A DNA stretch of 64,000 nt. It comes from a virus. The position numbers and the translations under genes were made by a program. The stretch spans positions 18,327 through 82,326 of IMG/VR virus record IMGVR_UViG_3300032304_001768, one strand, 5' to 3'. Every line of letters begins with the position of its first letter. Position 1 is the stretch's first letter. Below the pieces are notes generated by a model, which was not told the origin of the DNA, made no database searches, and saw only the letters and a program-made list of their open reading frames with translations. Below, one piece after another: positions 34,854 through 51,913 of this stretch.

Positions 34854-35521
34854 ATGATTTCGTCAACCAATCCATATTGAAGACACTCTTCAGCAGTAAG
34901 CCAAATATCTTTCTTCAATAGTTCATCAATCTTCTTAACAGGAAGCTTTGTGTGTTCCTTGTAGAAGCTTTTCAGAATGCTCATGAGATTGGTTACATTG
35001 TATATTTCATCTTCCAACTCACTAAATTTGCCATACATGCCACCTGAGATTTGGTGAATTAGAATGTGGGAATATTTTCCGATAACTCTGTGGTCTCCCA
35101 TTAGAGCTATGAAAGTCGCTGCACTAGCAGCATAGCCATCTACATAAGTATAGACTTTTGATTTCATAGTTCTAATTGTATCAACAATTGCAAATGCTGG
35201 ATAAACTTCTCCTCCATCACTTGCAATGTGCAAATGACAAACAGGTTCAAAATCATCACCCAATGTATTCTTGATATTTTGAAGCTTTACATCAAGATCC
35301 AGCAATGTTCTGTTGAGATCCAATGCTGCTGTTTGATCGATGCTTCCGTAAAAAAATATCTTATTGTCCAATACTCTGATAGATCCTTGGGGATTCCAAG
35401 TTTCATTTGATGTCGGAGCTTGCATATTCAGATAAATGGGAACTTGTTGTAAAACTTGTTCGTCTTCTTCGCTTGCTTTATATTTCCATCGTTTCATAAG
35501 AATGTTTTTGTTAGGCTTCAC
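34850..35521 (-). CDS. ClpP-like serine protease
   Basis: A 223-residue protein of the ClpP fold: HIASDGGEVYPAFAIVD, then GYAASAATFIALMG (nucleophile Ser in the G-x-A-S-A-A turn), HILIHQISGG (catalytic His) and a C-terminal WLTAEECLQYGLVDEI. An N-terminal extension of about 45 residues is not seen in cellular ClpP. Phage ClpP-like enzymes often act in prohead maturation, but gp21 already covers that here, so a role in host takeover or in injected-protein processing is possible. The start overlaps the nrdA stop. Confidence 0.82.
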   Translation of the reverse strand: MKPNKNILMKRWKYKASEEDEQVLQQVPIYLNMQAPTSNETWNPQGSIRVLDNKIFFYGSIDQTAALDLNRTLLDLDVKLQNIKNTLGDDFEPVCHLHIASDGGEVYPAFAIVDTIRTMKSKVYTYVDGYAASAATFIALMGDHRVIGKYSHILIHQISGGMYGKFSELEDEIYNVTNLMSILKSFYKEHTKLPVKKIDELLKKDIWLTAEECLQYGLVDEII

Positions 35522-38336
35522 ACGTTGTGCAATTCAAGATATTTCTGGCCAACTCTTGAGCAGGGTTGCTGCTTCTTTGATAGTAGAAGCTCTTGATTCC
35601 ATTTTCCCATCCAAAAATCATAAGTTCATTAACTTCTTTTGGTTTGGTATTTGGTGGAATCATAAGATTCAGACTTTGGCCTTGATCTATGAATTTCTGG
35701 CGTTGAATTGCTTGAATGACAATTTCCTTTTGGGAAATTTCTCCGAATGTTTTGAACACATCCTTTTCCTCTTGTGTAAGGAATTTAAGATGCTGAACAC
35801 TTCCACCACGAACAAGAATACTCTTCCAAGTAACTTGATTGTTTTTATCTTTGGATTCGAGCAGTTTGATTAGATAAGGATTCTTAAAGGTGAATTTACC
35901 TTTAGCAAGATCCTTTGTGTAATAGTTGCTATTCAAAGGTTCAATACTTGGAGAGACCTGACCAAGAATAAATGAGCTTGATGTTGTAGGAGCAACTGCG
36001 AGAGTTGTTACATTTCTACGACATTGATCGCTACCAATATAAATTGGAGCGCATCCAAACAACTTAGCAAGTTCTTCGGTTGCCTTGTCAGCTTTCTCTC
36101 GGATCTTACTCCAAACAGACATATTCAGAAGTTTAGCATCCATTGATTCAAATGCAATCATTTTATCTTGAAGAAGGCTATGCCATCCCAAAACACCAAC
36201 ACCCAATGCGCGTTGATTAACTGCAAAGTTTCTTGGAGCTTCCATGAATTTAACATTGGTGGTTTTAGTAATGAATTCTGACATAACAGCATCCAAGAAG
36301 TAAACCAAAGTCTCAACAGCGTCTGTATCTTTCCACTCTTCCCATTTTTCAAGATTTAAAGATGAAAGATCACAAACAAACGATTCATTTTCATCATTTG
36401 AAAGGAAAATCTCAGAACAAAGATTTGAATTGTGAATTTTTCTTCCTGTTGCTTTATAAATTTCAGGAGCCTGATCGTTGGCATTGTCGCTGAAGAAAAT
36501 GTAAGGATAACCGCTTTCAAAACGTTTTTGAATAACCTTACCCCAAATCTTACGCTTTGTCGCGTCTCCTGCAATCATGGAAGACATCCAATCATTGGAA
36601 ACACAAACGCCAATACTCATATCCTGAATTTCATGACCATCAGAACGTATCTTTAGGAATTCTTCAATATCAGGATGATCAATTGGTAGATAACCTGCGA
36701 ATGATCCACGACGAACATTACCTTGCGATACGACGTTCATAAGCTTGTTATAAAGCTCCATGAAGTGAACTGCGCCAGTAGATGACCCACCTGATGATAT
36801 AGACGCTCCACGACCTCGTAGTGCGCCAAAATAGCCACTTGTGCCGCCTCCAGCCTTGGTCATTTGACCAACCTCTGCCAAAGTGTTTAGAATGCCTTCC
36901 ATGGTATCTGGAATGTAAGATCCAAAACAATTATGCAATACTACACCAGATGCGCTAAAAGAATGATCTTCATCTACTGTGAAGTCATAAACATCCTCAA
37001 CCTTTTCAGTAAGATGCAATTCTTTAATTTTGGCATATCGCAACCCATCGTAAAATTTAATAGCTGAATTGCTGTTATTTTTTGAATACTTGTCATTATA
37101 TTTTCTAAAATTGCATGTATACGTGTGTGGTGTGGTTGATAAAACAGAAGATTTTTCTTGCATTTGTAATGACATTCCCAGACCTAGCTTCAAACCGATT
37201 TGATATATTTGAAGAAGCATTTTAGGATTTGCCACCGTTATTCTACAATCTTGGCACTTAGTTATAGTCCCATCACCAGCCAACAAGCCATCTAAGAAAT
37301 ATTTTAATTTCTGTTTGGGTAATTCCATAATCCATTCTGGAATCAATTTATTCTTACATCCATCACCAAATGAATGAAACAAATTTCCAATTATTTGAGA
37401 ATTAACATCGGTAGTTAGCCAAGTATAGATAACATCACCTCTTTTAGTAGAGCCTGTATAAGTATTACCATTTAAATTCAATTTAGACTTCATAATATTC
37501 AACCATTTATGTGTCAATTCAGCTTCGTCTTTATCATTTGTTGTTATTCGTATCCCGACAGGTTCTTTTTTGTTATTTTTGGAAACGCTACCTTCAGCAA
37601 ACCAAAGTCCAAACGCCCACGCCAAATCTTCATCAATTTCTATAAATTCGAATGGGTTTGAAAAATACTCTACTGTTTTTCCATTTTTGGTAGTTTTTGA
37701 TTTGGTATTTTTTGAAATTTCTTTGTAAATCTTTCCATCGATAACATGTGGGTTGTAACTATTACAAAACGATTTCATATCTATTGTGTAGTCCTTCTCA
37801 ACACTCTCAATATCACCGTTGATCGCAACGAGATGCAGATCAGGATTAAGTTCGTCGGTTCGCACCCATCCCACGTTAGTTAAAACTAAATGATTGCCTG
37901 TTAGATAAAGAGGAGTCATTCTATTAGAAACTTTTAATTTAAAAATATTATTTTTATTTTTAGTTGGTATAATATCAATAACTTTTCTATAACGTCCCCG
38001 GTGGGTGAGAACTTCGTCTCCAATTTCTATATCCTTTGCCATTTTACCTCCACCGCTCTTTGTATTAATCCAAGTGTCACCAACGACACAACTAATAGGC
38101 AATCCACGAAGTCTTCCAAAGTTTGAAATTATAGGACTTGAAATTGAATAAAAACCTCTACTTAAGTAGTCTTCAAACTTATTCGCAAATCCATCAATTC
38201 CCAAATAACGCTCTGCTGTTTTTGCTATATCTTTAAACCTTTCTTCTGGTGTTTCACCTTCTAAAAGATATCCTCTTTCCAGAAATTTTCTGGAATCCTC
38301 ATTAAGCCAATAGTATTTTGTGTTTATCATATTCAT
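35511..38336 (-). CDS. nrdA: Ribonucleotide reductase large subunit with intein
   Basis: A 941-residue precursor from the ATG at 38336. Removal of the 387-residue intein leaves 554 residues, short for NrdA and without the N-terminal ATP-cone. Class Ia hallmarks remain: GLPIS/CFGSYIPDT around the splice point, HNSNLCSEIF (Asn-Cys-Glu active site), FVCDLSSLNL (second redox Cys), KSFYYQRSS (radical-transfer Tyr pair) and a C-terminal CTTCEA thiol pair. It follows nrdB and a small gene in the same transcript and reduces NDPs to dNDPs for phage DNA synthesis. Confidence 0.93.
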   Translation of the reverse strand: MNMINTKYYWLNEDSRKFLERGYLLEGETPEERFKDIAKTAERYLGIDGFANKFEDYLSRGFYSISSPIISNFGRLRGLPISCVVGDTWINTKSGGGKMAKDIEIGDEVLTHRGRYRKVIDIIPTKNKNNIFKLKVSNRMTPLYLTGNHLVLTNVGWVRTDELNPDLHLVAINGDIESVEKDYTIDMKSFCNSYNPHVIDGKIYKEISKNTKSKTTKNGKTVEYFSNPFEFIEIDEDLAWAFGLWFAEGSVSKNNKKEPVGIRITTNDKDEAELTHKWLNIMKSKLNLNGNTYTGSTKRGDVIYTWLTTDVNSQIIGNLFHSFGDGCKNKLIPEWIMELPKQKLKYFLDGLLAGDGTITKCQDCRITVANPKMLLQIYQIGLKLGLGMSLQMQEKSSVLSTTPHTYTCNFRKYNDKYSKNNSNSAIKFYDGLRYAKIKELHLTEKVEDVYDFTVDEDHSFSASGVVLHNCFGSYIPDTMEGILNTLAEVGQMTKAGGGTSGYFGALRGRGASISSGGSSTGAVHFMELYNKLMNVVSQGNVRRGSFAGYLPIDHPDIEEFLKIRSDGHEIQDMSIGVCVSNDWMSSMIAGDATKRKIWGKVIQKRFESGYPYIFFSDNANDQAPEIYKATGRKIHNSNLCSEIFLSNDENESFVCDLSSLNLEKWEEWKDTDAVETLVYFLDAVMSEFITKTTNVKFMEAPRNFAVNQRALGVGVLGWHSLLQDKMIAFESMDAKLLNMSVWSKIREKADKATEELAKLFGCAPIYIGSDQCRRNVTTLAVAPTTSSSFILGQVSPSIEPLNSNYYTKDLAKGKFTFKNPYLIKLLESKDKNNQVTWKSILVRGGSVQHLKFLTQEEKDVFKTFGEISQKEIVIQAIQRQKFIDQGQSLNLMIPPNTKPKEVNELMIFGWENGIKSFYYQRSSNPAQELARNILNCTTCEA
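36930..38090 (-). mobile_element. Intein (LAGLIDADG type) in nrdA
   Basis: 387 residues from Cys (CVVGDTWINTKSGGGK, block A) to the terminal HN in SASGVVLHN, followed by Cys+1 of the extein CFGSYIPD. Block B is TGNHLVLTNVG; two LAGLIDADG-like helices are LAWAFGLWFAEGS and YFLDGLLAGDGT. The splice point lies immediately before the active-site Cys equivalent to E. coli NrdA Cys225, a classic conserved insertion site. Confidence 0.95.
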
Positions 38337-38343
38337 TAAATTT

Positions 38344-38772
38344 TTAGTTTGGAATAGATTCCAATAATTTTTTAGCGACTTCAATCGCTTCATCTTCCGA
38401 AACTGTCGTGTCGAATGGACCATCTGGGTCGTTTATAATTTGCTCCAACCCTTCAGAAGCAATATCATAACTGTTCAAATAATCAACTCCAAAATATTCG
38501 GATAAAGCTTTATTTGTCATTAAACCATTGACATCCAAATATTTCCCACTTGGATGTTCTACGACAACGTGAGAATATTCTATATCATTATCGCCATCAT
38601 CTTCATCATACCATCCCTCACCATCAGGATCTGATAAGATATAAATTCGCCATCCAGTTAACTTGTTCAATGCCAATGCTAAAATTGCACAATTCCCTTG
38701 CATATATGAATCAATATCAAATTGATTGTTTAAATTTTCATACAATGCCCTTAATTTATTATAATCGTTCAT
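38344..38772 (-). CDS. Putative papain/transglutaminase-fold cysteine peptidase-like protein
   Basis: A 142-residue protein between nrdB and nrdA. MQGNCAILALALNKLTG places a Cys (28) at the start of a helix, YSHVVVEHPSGKYLDVNG supplies His 68 and Asp 80, giving a C-H-D order as in transglutaminase/papain-like folds. The N-terminus NDYNKLRALYENLNNQ resembles the targeting-like N-termini of other proteins here. It has no counterpart in T4 nrd operons. Activity not proven. Confidence 0.55.
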   Translation of the reverse strand: MNDYNKLRALYENLNNQFDIDSYMQGNCAILALALNKLTGWRIYILSDPDGEGWYDEDDGDNDIEYSHVVVEHPSGKYLDVNGLMTNKALSEYFGVDYLNSYDIASEGLEQIINDPDGPFDTTVSEDEAIEVAKKLLESIPN

Positions 38773-44534: not shown

Positions 44535-44658
44535 GTGCTGTAGAATAGAGATACTTCTAAAAGGAAAATCGGTATCGAAAGATGTGTGGGTTCGAATCCC
44601 ACTCAGGCTCAATAAGTGGTCTGATGGCGGAATGGTAGACGCGCTGATAATAAAAAGC
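44535..44658 (+). tRNA. Possible circularly permuted class II tRNA (3' half before 5' half)
   Basis: A 3' half (about 44569-44609: ATCGG, variable hairpin ATC-GAAA-GAT, T-arm GTGGG TTCGAAT CCCAC, acceptor TCAGGCT) is followed after 8 nt by a 5' half (44618 onward: acceptor GGTCTGA, D-arm GCG-loop-CGC, CTGAT). The halves pair with each other over 7 acceptor and 5 anticodon-stem positions. No T33 is identifiable, so activity is uncertain; tandem duplication with deletions is an alternative. Confidence 0.4.
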
Positions 44659-44684
44659 CTCTGTTCGTTTGTTGCCTTGTTAAT

Positions 44685-44944: not shown

Positions 44945-45035
44945 AGTTGCATGGAACTAAACAATAAGGCCAATGGTAGATCTGGACTCTAATATAGATC
45001 CGTGTTCTTTGTAGGTTCGAGTCCTACTGTGACTA
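44945..45035 (+). tRNA. tRNA-like element, anticodon uncertain, no CCA
   Basis: Acceptor AGTTGCA / TGTGACT and a good T-arm GTAGG TTCGAGT CCTAC, but the D and anticodon regions (44952-45005) do not fold normally: GATCT...AGATC encloses 12 nt. Followed by A-TGA rather than CCA. Probably decaying. Confidence 0.4.
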
Positions 45036-45063
45036 TGATATTGTCGCGTTGATCGGTGACTGA

Positions 45064-46720: not shown

Positions 46721-46750
46721 AATAATTGGAGATTTTATTTGGTATCCAAC

Positions 46751-46756
46751 TAAATA
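46751..46756 (+). promoter_or_regulatory. Late promoter -10 box TAAATA
   Basis: Ends 5 nt before the HNH gene ATG at 46762. Confidence 0.65.
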
Positions 46757-46761
46757 ATAGT

Positions 46762-47424
46762 ATGGATACCTTAGAAAAAATATCAAAAGAAGATGCGAAG
46801 ATATTAAAGCAAAAATGGTATTTTACTGGATTGGAATGTTCAAATGGCCACTTAGATAAAAGATATACAAACACAGGCATATGTTATGGGTGTAAGCGTT
46901 CACAGAATAACAGATCTAATGCAAAAAATCCAGAAACTTTAAAAGTTATAAGCTCAAGAACTTATCAAAAAAATAAAGAATCTAAATTGGAACAATCTAA
47001 AAGATGGGCACAACGGAACAGAGAAAAATCTAATGCTATTAAATCTAAATGGAAACAAGTTCATAGAGAGCAACATTTGGAACAAGCAAAGAAATATTCC
47101 AAAAATCAAAGAAAAGATCCGTTCAAACGAATTAGTAAAAATATGAGTAAAGCTATATGGCAATCTTTAAAAGGAAAAAAAGGAGGTTCCCATTGGCTAT
47201 CATTTGTGGATTTTACAATTGAAGAATTAACAATTCATTTAGAAAGTAAATTCAAAGAAGGTATGACTTGGGAAAACTATGGCAAATATTGGCATGTTGA
47301 CCATATCAGACCGCTTAGTTGGTTTAATTTAGAACTTGAATTTAAAGATGCATGGTGTTTGGGAAATCTTCAACCATTAGAAGCAGTTTTAAATTTGAGA
47401 AAAAATAATAGATACGAAGGTTGA
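46762..47424 (+). CDS. HNH homing endonuclease
   Basis: About 220 residues. A Cys pair SNGH ... CYGCKR near the N-terminus, a long Lys/Arg/Gln-rich helical linker (about 45-130), then the HNH core KYWHVDHIRPLSWFNLE and CLGNLQPLEAVLNLRKNNR at the C-terminus. This type is common among phage homing nucleases. It is read from a late box and lies between tRNA-Ile/mazG and tRNA-Gly. Confidence 0.82.
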   Translation: MDTLEKISKEDAKILKQKWYFTGLECSNGHLDKRYTNTGICYGCKRSQNNRSNAKNPETLKVISSRTYQKNKESKLEQSKRWAQRNREKSNAIKSKWKQVHREQHLEQAKKYSKNQRKDPFKRISKNMSKAIWQSLKGKKGGSHWLSFVDFTIEELTIHLESKFKEGMTWENYGKYWHVDHIRPLSWFNLELEFKDAWCLGNLQPLEAVLNLRKNNRYEG

Positions 47425-48349: not shown

Positions 48350-48358
48350 TTTAATAAC

Positions 48359-48418
48359 ACAGTATTCGTCTAATGGCTTAAGACTACTCCCTCCAAAAGA
48401 GAAAACGTGGGTTCGAAT
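48359..48418 (+). pseudogene. tRNA-Trp-like 5' fragment, cut in the T-loop
   Basis: ACAGTAT start, D-arm-like region, loop CTCCAAA (CCA anticodon) on a weak stem, then GTGGG TTCGAAT and an abrupt end. The 3' T-stem and acceptor are absent; an HNH gene follows. Confidence 0.5.
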
Positions 48419-48428
48419 ATCATTTATG

Positions 48429-48434
48429 TAAATA
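48429..48434 (+). promoter_or_regulatory. Late promoter -10 box TAAATA
   Basis: Ends 5 nt before the HNH gene ATG at 48440. Confidence 0.65.
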
Positions 48435-48439
48435 CTTTC

Positions 48440-49138
48440 ATGGACTACAAAACTATATATGACAATTTAATTAAACATAGACAGGAACATCCAGCTGAAG
48501 GATATACCGAACAGCATCATATAGTCATGCGCAGTATGGGCGGAAGTAATGAATCATCAAATCTTGTTTCTTTAACTGGTCGCGAACATTGGATTGCTCA
48601 TTTACTCTTATACAAGATTCATCGAAATAAGTTATCAGCCTATGCTTGCCATATGATGGCAATGAAATGTGAAAAACGTGGCATACCACATGTTCGTAAT
48701 TCTCGAATGTATGAAAAAATAAGAATATTATGTTCTAAACATATTGGTATAAATAATACACATACTCAAACAGGGGTGAAAAATTCTCAATACGGAACGC
48801 GGTGGATATGCAATATTCTTTTGCAGCAAAATCAAAAAATTTCTAAAGATGTGGAATTACCTGATGGATGGATCGTCGGTCGAAATAAATGGATAGATCA
48901 TAGCGTAACGCTTAGTTGTGTGACATGTAAATCAACATTCAAAACGTTGAATGTGAGATCTAAATATTGTTCGCGAACGTGTTATCCACCTCGCAAGCCC
49001 ATGAAAGTCTCTTACGAGACCAGACAAAAAATGTCTATCATTAAGAAAGAATTATATAAAGATCCAACACGTAATCCAAATTACGGAAAATTTAAAAATA
49101 AAAAAACACAGTTGCAGCAAGTGGCGGTTGCAGAATGA
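48440..49138 (+). CDS. HNH homing endonuclease whose end overlaps tRNA-Trp
   Basis: About 232 residues: YTEQHHIVMRSMGGSNESSN and LTGREHWIAHLLLYKIHRNK form the HNH core (H-H, N, H), followed by a zinc-ribbon-like CVTCKSTFKTLN ... YCSRTCY and a NUMOD-like C-terminal helix ETRQKMSIIKKEL. The last ten codons (TQLQQVAVAE) lie inside the 5' half of the tRNA-Trp gene at 49108, so gene and tRNA share sequence. Confidence 0.82.
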   Translation: MDYKTIYDNLIKHRQEHPAEGYTEQHHIVMRSMGGSNESSNLVSLTGREHWIAHLLLYKIHRNKLSAYACHMMAMKCEKRGIPHVRNSRMYEKIRILCSKHIGINNTHTQTGVKNSQYGTRWICNILLQQNQKISKDVELPDGWIVGRNKWIDHSVTLSCVTCKSTFKTLNVRSKYCSRTCYPPRKPMKVSYETRQKMSIIKKELYKDPTRNPNYGKFKNKKTQLQQVAVAE

Positions 49139-49185
49139 CTCCAAATCATTTGTTTTAGCGAGTTCGATCCTCGCCAACTGTGCCA
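49108..49185 (+). tRNA. tRNA-Trp (CCA)
   Basis: Acceptor ACAGTTG / CAACTGT, anticodon arm AATGA CTCCAAA TCATT, T-arm GCGAG TTCGATC CTCGC, discriminator G, CCA. Overlaps the 3' end of the HNH gene by 31 nt. Confidence 0.92.
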
Positions 49186-49357: not shown

Positions 49358-49447
49358 TTTAAGTTTATATCGGCATGTGGAGAAATTGGCAGTCTCGGCA
49401 GACTTTAAAGTTTAAATTTATCCTCATGTAGCAATCTAGTTGAGGGG

Positions 49448-49476
49448 TTGACAAACAATTCCTATGCTACTAAATA
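49448..49476 (+). promoter_or_regulatory. Hybrid early/late promoter inside the split tRNA
   Basis: TTGACA, 17-nt spacer, TAAATA, 5 nt to the HNH gene ATG at 49482. The spacer region can also pair as GTAGCA / TGCTAC. Confidence 0.6.
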
Positions 49477-49481
49477 ATAAC

Positions 49482-50276
49482 ATGTCTGCAAAATTAAGAA
49501 AGTATACCAAAGAATTTTTAGAACCTAAAGTTAAAGAAGTCACATCAATGACTGCTTTAATAGAAAGCATAGGGCTTAAACTTACTGGAGGCAGTTATCG
49601 ACTGTTAAAACAAAGAATAAATCAACATGGAATATCCATAGATCATTTTATTGGACATGGTTGGTCGAAAGGATTAACTAAAGAAACATCAGATACATTA
49701 AATAAAAATTCTCTTAAAACGAGGACGCCCCATGAAAAAGTTTTTTGTATAAATTCCGGGTTTAATTCTAGTAAATTAAAATATAGATTATTAGATCTTG
49801 GTTGGGAAGACAAATGCAATATTTGTGGATTGAAGGACTGGCTAGGTAATCCTATTACTTTACATGTTGATCATATAAATGGAATATCCGGAGATAATAG
49901 ATTGGAAAATTTGCAAATAATTTGTCCCAACTGCCATCAACAAACAGAAACATGGGGTAATAAAAAAGACAAGGGGAGTATGGTGAAATTGCTAAACACG
50001 CCAGACTTAGGATCTGGTGCCGAAGGGCTTGTCGGTTGGAGTCTGACTACTCCCACCAAAAAATGTATAGACTGTGATAAAAAATGCTCTTGTAATGCTA
50101 CAAGATGTAAATCTTGCGAAGCTATTAGAAAAAACAATAATATAAAAAAAAGAGTTTCTAAAGAACAATTAATTTTAGATTTAAAAGATTTAAAAACATA
50201 TGTTGAAATATCTAAAAAATATAATGTATCTGATGTATCCATTAAAAAATGGTGTAAATTTTATAATCTAGTTTAA
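49482..50276 (+). CDS. HNH endonuclease containing a tRNA-Leu gene in frame
   Basis: About 264 residues. The HNH core is CNICGLKDWLGNPITLHVDH, then INGISGDNRLENLQIICPNC. A helical domain precedes it, and a C-terminal zinc ribbon (KKCIDCDKKCSC, RCKSCEA) plus a helix-turn-helix-like YVEISKKYNVSDVSIKKWC follows. Codons for about residues 165-193 coincide with the complete tRNA-Leu(UAG) gene at 49974-50058, read without a stop. The protein is therefore presumably interrupted by about 29 tRNA-derived residues between nuclease and zinc ribbon. Confidence 0.78.
   Translation: MSAKLRKYTKEFLEPKVKEVTSMTALIESIGLKLTGGSYRLLKQRINQHGISIDHFIGHGWSKGLTKETSDTLNKNSLKTRTPHEKVFCINSGFNSSKLKYRLLDLGWEDKCNICGLKDWLGNPITLHVDHINGISGDNRLENLQIICPNCHQQTETWGNKKDKGSMVKLLNTPDLGSGAEGLVGWSLTTPTKKCIDCDKKCSCNATRCKSCEAIRKNNNIKKRVSKEQLILDLKDLKTYVEISKKYNVSDVSIKKWCKFYNLV
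49974..50058 (+). tRNA. tRNA-Leu (UAG), nested in the HNH gene
   Basis: Acceptor GGGAGTA / TACTCCC, anticodon arm CCAGA CTTAGGA TCTGG, class II variable arm, T-arm GTCGG TTGGAGT CTGAC, A73, encoded CCA. A well-formed tRNA entirely within protein-coding sequence. Confidence 0.9.
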
Positions 50277-50338
50277 ACAAAAGAATCTGTTGCTTAATCG
50301 CGTGTGGGTTCGAGTCCCACCATGCCGACCATTTAGAT

Positions 50339-50344
50339 TAAATA
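50339..50344 (+). promoter_or_regulatory. Late promoter -10 box TAAATA
   Basis: Ends 5 nt before the ATG at 50350. Confidence 0.7.
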
Positions 50345-50349
50345 GTTTT

Positions 50350-51155
50350 ATGTTAAACTTTAAACAATTCTTCTTCGAACGTGCATTCCACGGTTCACCA
50401 AACGAGGTGGCTGGAGATTTCAATCTGGATTATATTGGAACTGGCGAAGGTGGACAAGCTTTTGGTTGGGGATTGTATTTTGCAGAAAACCCTAAAGTTG
50501 CTGAAACGTATAAAAATTTACATCCATACTCTCAGAGAGAAGTTCGATACAAAGGAAAAACTCCGAGAGAATGGGAAGATGTTAGTGATGGAACGAGCAA
50601 TATGTTTGGGAGAAGATTAGACTGAATGTTTCAAAAGAAGATTTATTAAATTATCCATTGTCCAAACAACAGCTTGATTTGGTGAAATCACTTCCTGATG
50701 AATTGTTTCATAAAGGTAATATGTATGAAGTTAACATTGATGCATCCATAGATGATTTCATTCATTACGATGGATCAGAATCTGAATATGATCCAATCTT
50801 AAAAAAGATCAATGATGGAATCAAAAGATTCTATCATTATGATGAAGGTAATTATTTTCAAGGAACATACGATGGAAAATCCATTTATCCAAAGGTGTGT
50901 AAAGTGGTTGCAGATTTTGAAAATAATTTAGAACAGTTTGGATCACAACCCACCAAAAATGAACAGATATTAGGAAGTAAATTCCTAGCAAAAGTGGGAG
51001 TCAAAGGAATTCGATATTTAGATGAGCTATCCAGATCATCTGGACAAGGCACTTATAACTATGTTATATTTGATCCATCTATTATTAAAATAGTGAAAAC
51101 GAACGGTCAGTTTGTGATGCCTTCCAAGAAACCAGAATCTGTCGAAATCGATTGA
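50350..51155 (+). pseudogene. ADP-ribosyltransferase-like effector (ART-PolyVal type), frameshifted
   Basis: The first frame (50350-50625, 91 residues) starts with a capsid-targeting-like MLNFKQFFFERAFHGS and continues IGTGEGGQAFGWGLYFAENP, the H-G-S and G-x-G-x-Y-F signature of ADP-ribosyltransferases found in phage polyvalent proteins. The second frame, open from 50589 and best joined near 50620, carries RLNVSKEDLL, LPDELFHKGNMYEVNID and the C-terminal KGIRYLDELSRSSGQGTYNY, which completes that family. A -1 shift between 50589 and 50625 restores one protein of about 265 residues. Programmed shift, mutation or sequencing error are all possible. Confidence 0.65.
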
Positions 51156-51179
51156 CAAATCGAAATCGTGTGTTACTCT
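51152..51179 (+). promoter_or_regulatory. Sigma70-type promoter, extended -10
   Basis: TTGACA, 16-nt spacer, TACTCT preceded by TGT; drives the second part of the tRNA cluster. Confidence 0.65.
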
Positions 51180-51228
51180 AAACACGTAATTGGCCATGTG
51201 GCGGATGAAAATTGAAAAATCAAGAAAA

Positions 51229-51780: not shown

Positions 51781-51897
51781 ATGGGCATGACATGGAGTAG
51801 ATGAGGGTTCGATTCCCTCACGGTCCACACTCTAAAAACGGGCCGATTGGTAGTGGCGCGACGGCACTCTTCGGGTTCGAGTCCCGACATGTCCACA
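51781..51897 (+). pseudogene. Two tRNA 3' remnants
   Basis: GAGGG TTCGATT CCCTC (about 51803-51819) and TCGGG TTCGAGT CCCGA (about 51873-51889) are intact T-arms ending in GGTCCACA and TGTCCACA. Each lacks an anticodon arm and a matching 5' acceptor. Confidence 0.5.
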
Positions 51898-51913
51898 AAC
51901 TTTAAAAAAGACC

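What the first reader, a model, noticed from the sequence alone, without database searches (positions are those of the whole stretch)
49371..50331. tRNA-Leu split by an HNH gene
The two halves keep a perfect 7-bp acceptor and a 5-bp anticodon stem, with the break in the anticodon loop, the usual place for tRNA introns. The insert is 876 nt, with HNH gene and its own promoter. I do not find a full group I core, so it is either a new intron type, a recent insertion, or trans-assembled halves.
Basis: partly seen in the sequence, partly recalled or inferred. Interest (0 to 1): 0.75.

Follow-up and report, generated by a model that had tools for sequence, protein, structure and literature searches.

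The report
Phage tRNA-Leu interrupted by HNH gene
In a phage genome, a DNA-cutting (HNH) gene has inserted into the anticodon loop of a leucine tRNA gene at the spot where related phages carry a self-splicing intron, but here no intron is present and an intact replacement leucine tRNA sits inside the inserted gene, so the broken tRNA probably needs no repair.

Summary
The split tRNA is real. Halves 49371-49405 and 50282-50331 join into a complete tRNA-Leu(UAG), broken after U34 by an 876-nt insert. There is no group I core: neither Rfam nor a model built from related introns finds one, though both find it in relatives. Those relatives carry HNH genes of the same family inside group I introns at the same base of tRNA-Leu(UAA). 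Nine others have a tRNA 5' half (eight of them Leu-type), then HNH, then a complete tRNA, without an intron, and this arrangement is scattered on the HNH tree. A close relative of the window phage (L194) shows an HNH abutting a tRNA-Leu(CAA) that lost its 5' half, and a clean empty site for a second HNH insertion (at tRNA-Trp) in this window. Best reading: a tRNA-Leu-targeting homing endonuclease gene inserted without an intron; the split tRNA is probably dead and the internal tRNA supplies the function. Splicing and trans-assembly are not supported. It is a new variant of a known kind; cleavage and RNA processing are untested.

The parts
49371..49405 (+). A5': 5' half of the interrupted tRNA-Leu(UAG), ending ...GGCAGACTT after U34
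   Evidence: the 10-mer CGGCAGACTT| at the break is identical to the 5' exon end of the group I intron in L043
49406..50281 (+). 876-nt insert
   Evidence: no group I/II match at E<=10, no match to the relatives' intron core
49406..49481 (+). leader between the break and the HNH start codon at 49482; no significant promoter or ribozyme
49464..50276 (+). HNH homing-endonuclease-like ORF (270 aa; more likely start 49482, 264 aa), phrog_10822 over its whole length
   Evidence: alignment with relatives starts at about residue 7-12
49974..50058 (+). B: complete tRNA-Leu(UAG) nested in frame in the HNH ORF, in the linker between the nuclease domain and the C-terminal domain; carries a C19-G56 swap of the usual G19-C56 pair
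50059..50276 (+). C-terminal zinc-ribbon/HTH part of the HNH ORF, still open and homologous to the C-termini of full-length relatives
50282..50331 (+). A3': 3' half of the interrupted tRNA-Leu(UAG), CCA encoded
48355..48420 (+). truncated tRNA-Trp-like fragment upstream of a second, unrelated HNH gene (parallel case)
48407..49138 (+). second HNH gene (phrog_655 homing endonuclease) inserted at the 5' end of tRNA-Trp; the empty site is seen in L194
49108..49185 (+). intact tRNA-Trp preserved downstream of the second HNH gene, 100% identical to L194

Best explanation
An HNH gene of a family that targets tRNA-Leu genes has inserted, without an intron, into the anticodon loop (U34|A35) of a phage tRNA-Leu(UAG) gene. 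Proposed mechanism: the nuclease cuts or nicks the anticodon region of tRNA-Leu; break repair copies in an HNH-tRNA-Leu stretch from a donor; recombination or end joining at tRNA sequence leaves the old 5' half upstream and, in this case, the old 3' half downstream. The interrupted tRNA is not spliced and is dead or dying. Translation is not harmed because the insert itself carries an intact tRNA-Leu(UAG). Maturation of that internal tRNA would also cut the HNH mRNA after the nuclease domain. Shown by sequence: the anatomy, the position, the absence of a ribozyme, the recurrence. Inferred: cleavage specificity, repair route, the fate of the halves.
For: Joined halves make tRNA-Leu(UAG), and the nested tRNA has the same anticodon. 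B looks functional: its stems pair, and its unusual G56 (the only non-C among 122 tRNA-Leu scanned) is matched by C19. Same HNH family in group I introns after the same base of tRNA-Leu(UAA) in seven phage loci. Intron-less 5' half / HNH / complete tRNA in L013, L015, L029, L054, L061, L071, L075, L076, L104. L104 repeats the full order: 5' half, HNH, complete tRNA-Leu, 3' remnant with 7/7 acceptor match. In L054 the upstream 5' half, not the adjacent one, fits the 3' half (sequences; pairing counted by eye). The half-architecture is scattered on the HNH tree (10 rows, 9 changes, at least 4 forced). Orphan Leu 5' halves lie within 150 nt upstream of HNH in 13 of 26 cases against 2.8% expected. 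Relative L194 has an HNH on the other strand just upstream of a tRNA-Leu(CAA) that has lost its 5' half and is intact in the window. HNH2 has a clean empty site in L194.
Against: No relative with an uninterrupted copy of tRNA A at this very locus was found; L194 lacks the whole block 49361-51185, so the empty site is shown only for the sister cases. Both halves of A are undecayed, which is expected of a recent insertion but also of halves under selection. Why the HNH ORF stays open through an 85-nt tRNA and keeps its C-terminal domain is not explained by a simple one-step insertion. Some freestanding relatives sit next to non-Leu tRNAs, and the enrichment of Leu neighbours is modest (p 0.005-0.02). 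The loci searched were chosen by HNH similarity.
Confidence: 0.74

Rival explanations
1. Degenerate group I intron: the insert descends from an HNH-bearing group I intron of tRNA-Leu; the ribozyme core 3' of the ORF was replaced by tRNA B and an HNH C-terminus, so splicing was lost and only the position is inherited.
For: Break after the same base and an identical 10-mer 5' flank as the intron in L043; the leader starts TAAAGTTT, like some intron starts (L066 TAAGGTAG, L080 TGAGAAAGTTT).
Against: No core remnant even with filters off (best 9.7 bits, against 10.5 bits for a chance match elsewhere). The window HNH groups with freestanding members (L004, L026, L021), not with the intron clade. 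The leader likeness is short and AT-rich.
Confidence: 0.12
2. Functional intron of a new type: the 876-nt insert is removed from the tRNA precursor by an unknown ribozyme or protein.
For: Undecayed exon halves and a break inside the anticodon, a site used by known tRNA introns.
Against: No Rfam match at E<=10 with working positive controls. The join that restores UAG makes the insert end in A, not the terminal G of group I. End complementarity is at chance. A complete tRNA of the same anticodon makes splicing unnecessary, and its processing would cut the precursor in two.
Confidence: 0.05
3. Trans-assembled tRNA: the halves are transcribed or released separately and joined in trans, as in Nanoarchaeum.
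For: Complementary halves with a break in the anticodon loop.
Against: No significant intervening complementarity at the insert ends; both halves are on the same strand in one array; no joining machinery is known to me in bacteria or phages for this; redundant intact tRNA.
Confidence: 0.03
4. Array shuffling without homing: recombination between tRNA repeats carried an HNH-tRNA fragment into tRNA A by chance, and the HNH played no part.
For: tRNA arrays recombine readily; the window array has duplicated and broken tRNAs, and HNH2 is flanked by an 8-bp tRNA-derived repeat.
Against: Orphan 5' halves concentrate just upstream of HNH genes (p 5e-14), and intron-borne relatives have the same target base.
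Confidence: 0.06

Closest known systems
Phage T4 SegB (GIY-YIG freestanding homing endonuclease in the tRNA cluster)
   Same: Freestanding homing endonuclease gene between phage tRNA genes; intronless homing that spreads the tRNA region (PMC2988022); SegB also amplifies a segment with an intact tRNA-Tyr (PMC13096335).
   Different: GIY-YIG, not HNH; listed as lying between tRNA-Arg and tRNA-Ile with an intergenic target, not inside a tRNA anticodon loop; not nested with a tRNA in its ORF.
Group I introns of tRNA-Leu(UAA) with endonuclease genes (here: L016, L043, L045, L060, L066, L080, L093)
   Same: Same HNH family, same break after U34 of a tRNA-Leu.
   Different: They keep a group I core and end in G; the window has neither. 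A 2014 review (PMC3984707) states that all phage introns known then lay in protein-coding genes, so these phage tRNA introns are themselves notable.
MobE split nrdA of Aeromonas phage Aeh1 / MobA split of T4 topoisomerase
   Same: HNH gene inserted in and splitting a phage gene without an intron (PMC2988022).
   Different: There the two protein pieces are thought or shown to assemble and work; here the gene is a tRNA and an intact substitute tRNA sits in the insert.
tRNA-Leu as integration site of Cluster J mycobacteriophages
   Same: An element whose attB core begins in the anticodon loop of a tRNA-Leu gene (PMC3706429).
   Different: Integrase-based; no integrase here, and an old half is left behind upstream.

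Membership tests
Group I intron | conserved P3-P7-P8 catalytic core | tested here: not met
   No RF00028 match at E<=10, while the same search finds it in L066 (7.6e-10) and L043 (5e-7); custom core model 9.7 bits, background level
Group I intron | 5' exon ends in U, intron ends in G | tested here: not met
   The 5' exon ends in U, but the join that restores the Leu(UAG) anticodon makes the insert end ...CAAA
Group I intron of tRNA-Leu | insertion between U34 and A35 of the anticodon | tested here: met
   CTT|AG join at 49405|50282; same break in seven intron-bearing relatives
Freestanding (intronless) HNH homing endonuclease | HNH nuclease domain with catalytic motif | tested here: met
   Pfam HNH 26.6 bits, cutoff 21.4; phrog_10822 E 6e-50; HNH fold in the model, Z about 4-5 to HNH structures
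Freestanding (intronless) HNH homing endonuclease | insertion polymorphism: an empty allele in a relative | tested here: inconclusive
   For this gene L194 lacks the whole block; for the sister gene HNH2 the empty site is clean
Freestanding (intronless) HNH homing endonuclease | cleavage of DNA in or near the insertion site | not testable with these tools
   needs protein
Split (trans) tRNA gene | complementary intervening sequences next to the break | tested here: not met
   7-bp AT stem at the ends, reached in 7% of shuffles; 28% of random 25-mer pairs of the insert bind as strongly
Archaeal-type bulge-helix-bulge tRNA intron | BHB motif at the exon junctions and a splicing endonuclease | not tested
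   no dedicated BHB search or endonuclease search was run

The most novel reading that the evidence does not exclude
HNH-tRNA-Leu is a mobile cassette that uses tRNA restoration instead of splicing: the endonuclease targets the same anticodon base as intron-borne relatives and travels with a 5' half or a whole tRNA-Leu, so that each insertion replaces the tRNA it destroys, with the tRNA even nested inside the endonuclease ORF so that tRNA processing limits nuclease expression.
Probability: 0.3. Interest if true: 0.75.

Novelty: new variant of a known kind. Interest (0 to 1): 0.55.

Why it matters
It shows a second way for a selfish endonuclease gene to sit harmlessly in an essential spot: carry a spare copy of the gene it breaks, instead of an intron that splices out. 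Intron-borne and intron-less members of one HNH family at the same tRNA base let the step between intron homing and intronless homing be tested directly. It would also help explain why phage tRNA arrays are full of broken, duplicated and chimeric tRNAs, and it warns annotators that tRNA finders see only the nested tRNA.

Tried and rejected
Group I/II ribozyme: none at E<=10, with positive controls and a custom core model. Own promoter: at chance. End complementarity for trans assembly: at chance. Exact copy of the A 3' half in viral contigs: none. Empty site in isolates: the nearest intact tRNA-Leu(UAG) to A is in Aeromonas phage Aswh_1 (81-82%), not syntenic as far as looked. L194, the nearest relative with the array, lacks the whole block, so it gives no empty site for A. 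A structural gene 95% alike (L197) has an unrelated small array. Search of the downstream ORF 50658-51152 in 45 relatives: nothing. Solved structures by sequence: none; by fold only generic HNH and HTH matches, Z about 5 or less. Literature searches found no description of this arrangement; only openly licensed papers were searched. A wrongly typed MazG reference failed and was not repeated.

Full report
What is there. The window is part of an 82-kb virus record of a T4-like phage (its major capsid protein matches T4-type gp23 proteins of cyanophages at about 32%) with a long tRNA array (28 genes by ARAGORN). At 49371-50331 two tRNA halves flank an HNH gene. Joined at 49405|50282 they make an 85-nt tRNA-Leu with anticodon UAG, 7/7 acceptor pairs and loop CTTAGAA. 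Mispaired halves from the same array are called tRNA in only 56 of 812 cases.

The insert contains a complete tRNA-Leu(UAG), here called B, at 49974-50058. It lies inside the HNH ORF 49464-50276, which stays open through it. In full-length relatives (Agrobacterium phage Atu_ph07, L006, L024) the nuclease domain and the C-terminal zinc-ribbon/HTH domain are joined by a short linker; in the window B occupies that linker. The whole ORF matches one family, phrog_10822, residues 8-265 against positions 2-243 of 245. AlphaFold2 gives high confidence for the nuclease part (mostly over 90) and the C-terminal part (77-94) and low confidence (about 46-55) for the tRNA-encoded stretch. B has G56 instead of C56, the only such case among 122 tRNA-Leu scanned, and by inspection C19 instead of G19 (sequence), which looks like a compensated pair and suggests that B works.

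Not a group I intron. Rfam shows nothing at E<=10 in the insert. The same search finds the group I core in HNH-bearing inserts of relatives L066 and L043. A model built from seven such cores finds its seven training sequences and one more intron (L034), but only background in the window. The insert also does not end in G at the join that restores the anticodon.

Relatives explain the position. Among HNH relatives in viral contigs, seven loci (L016, L043, L045, L060, L066, L080, L093) have tRNA-Leu(UAA) split after ...GACTT, that is between U34 and A35, by a group I intron that encodes the HNH. For L093 the automatic 3' end picked an internal site; the 3' half seen is the right one. The window break is after the same base, and its last ten bases before the break are identical to those of L043. 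So this HNH family is linked to that site with and without an intron.

The intron-less arrangement recurs. L013, L015, L029, L054, L061, L071, L075, L076 and L104 have a tRNA 5' half, then HNH, then a complete tRNA. The half is Leu-like except in L061 (Lys-like). Some of these halves are weak matches, L029, L061, L071 and L076 most of all. L104 has the window's full order, ending in a 3' remnant whose acceptor strand matches the upstream half 7/7. In L054 the 3' half fits the far upstream 5' half (counted by eye on the sequences), so the nearby 5' half came with the HNH. On a tree of 89 HNH domains this state is scattered (10 rows, 9 changes, at least 4 forced), whereas intron-borne members cluster. 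Orphan Leu 5' halves fall within 150 nt upstream of HNH genes in 13 of 26 cases against 2.8% expected. HNH genes also sit directly upstream of an intact tRNA-Leu(UAG) in cultured phages mistaenkt, PPSC2, phiPsa347 and Vibrio phage D69.

A close relative as comparator. L194 (a 30-kb contig, capsid protein 89%) has the same array at 83-99% identity. It lacks the whole block 49361-51185, so it cannot show the empty site of this insertion. It does show two things. Its tRNA-Leu(CAA), intact in the window, has lost its 5' half and is abutted by an HNH gene on the other strand. And at the window's second HNH gene, L194 reads straight through, AATAACACAGTTGCAGC, while the window has AATAACACAGT, a truncated Trp-like tRNA, HNH2, AAACACAGT and an intact tRNA-Trp identical to L194. 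This is a clean insertion that kept the target tRNA whole.

Mechanism. The best reading is intronless homing at tRNA-Leu. The nuclease cuts the anticodon region; repair from a donor brings in HNH with a tRNA-Leu; the old tRNA is left as halves, and B with the same anticodon replaces it. Processing of B would cut the transcript between the halves of A and also cut the HNH message after the nuclease domain; this is inference. Cleavage, homing and the RNA outcome are untested. An origin from a degenerate intron cannot be excluded (about 12%): the break is shared, but no core remnant is left and the window HNH groups with freestanding members.

Novelty. Freestanding homing endonucleases in phage tRNA clusters are known (T4 SegB; PMC2988022, PMC13096335), and so are HNH genes that split phage genes (MobE, MobA; PMC2988022). 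I found no report of HNH genes in the anticodon loop of phage tRNA-Leu with a substitute tRNA inside, nor of HNH-bearing group I introns in phage tRNA-Leu; a 2014 review states that phage introns known then were all in protein-coding genes (PMC3984707). The searches covered only openly licensed papers. I rate it a new variant of a known kind.

Noticed in passing
L016, L043, L045, L060, L066, L080, L093 and L034:877-1700: Group I introns in tRNA-Leu(UAA) genes of uncultured phages; a 2014 review (PMC3984707) says none were known in phage tRNA genes. Seven carry the HNH of this family; the L034 intron carries a different ORF.
   Followed up: partly
window 48355-49185: Second HNH gene (phrog_655) inserted at tRNA-Trp with a truncated Trp-like tRNA upstream, an intact tRNA-Trp downstream and an 8-bp AACACAGT repeat at both ends; clean empty site in L194.
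   Followed up: yes
L022, L023, L052, L075, L078, L085, L091, L092: HNH ORFs whose stop codon falls at positions 8-10 of the downstream tRNA (tRNA start 9 nt before the ORF end), seen as TAG in GodonK: the conserved tRNA bases may serve as stop codon.
   Followed up: no
window 49974-50058: tRNA-Leu(UAG) with the G19-C56 tertiary pair swapped to C19-G56; G56 is unique among 122 tRNA-Leu scanned.
   Followed up: partly
window 46726-47424: Third HNH-type gene (endonuclease VII-like, phrog_1035) inserted between a MazG-like gene and tRNA-Gly; absent from L194.
   Followed up: partly
L005 and L015 (HNH ORF 2986-3585 in L015): HNH ORF reads right through a complete tRNA-Leu(GAG), a second case of a tRNA nested in such an ORF.
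   Followed up: no
window 44557-44660, 44989-45040, 51798-51906: Further orphan tRNA pieces in the array, including a Leu-like 5' piece near 44622.
   Followed up: no
window 35511-38423 (minus): Ribonucleotide reductase large subunit (NrdA-like) ORF of 970 aa that appears to contain an intein (CVVGDTWINT... ending VVLHNC), judged from the translation only.
   Followed up: no
L004:2392-2849: GOLLD RNA directly upstream of the HNH/tRNA-Leu(TAG) pair in the nearest HNH relative.
   Followed up: no
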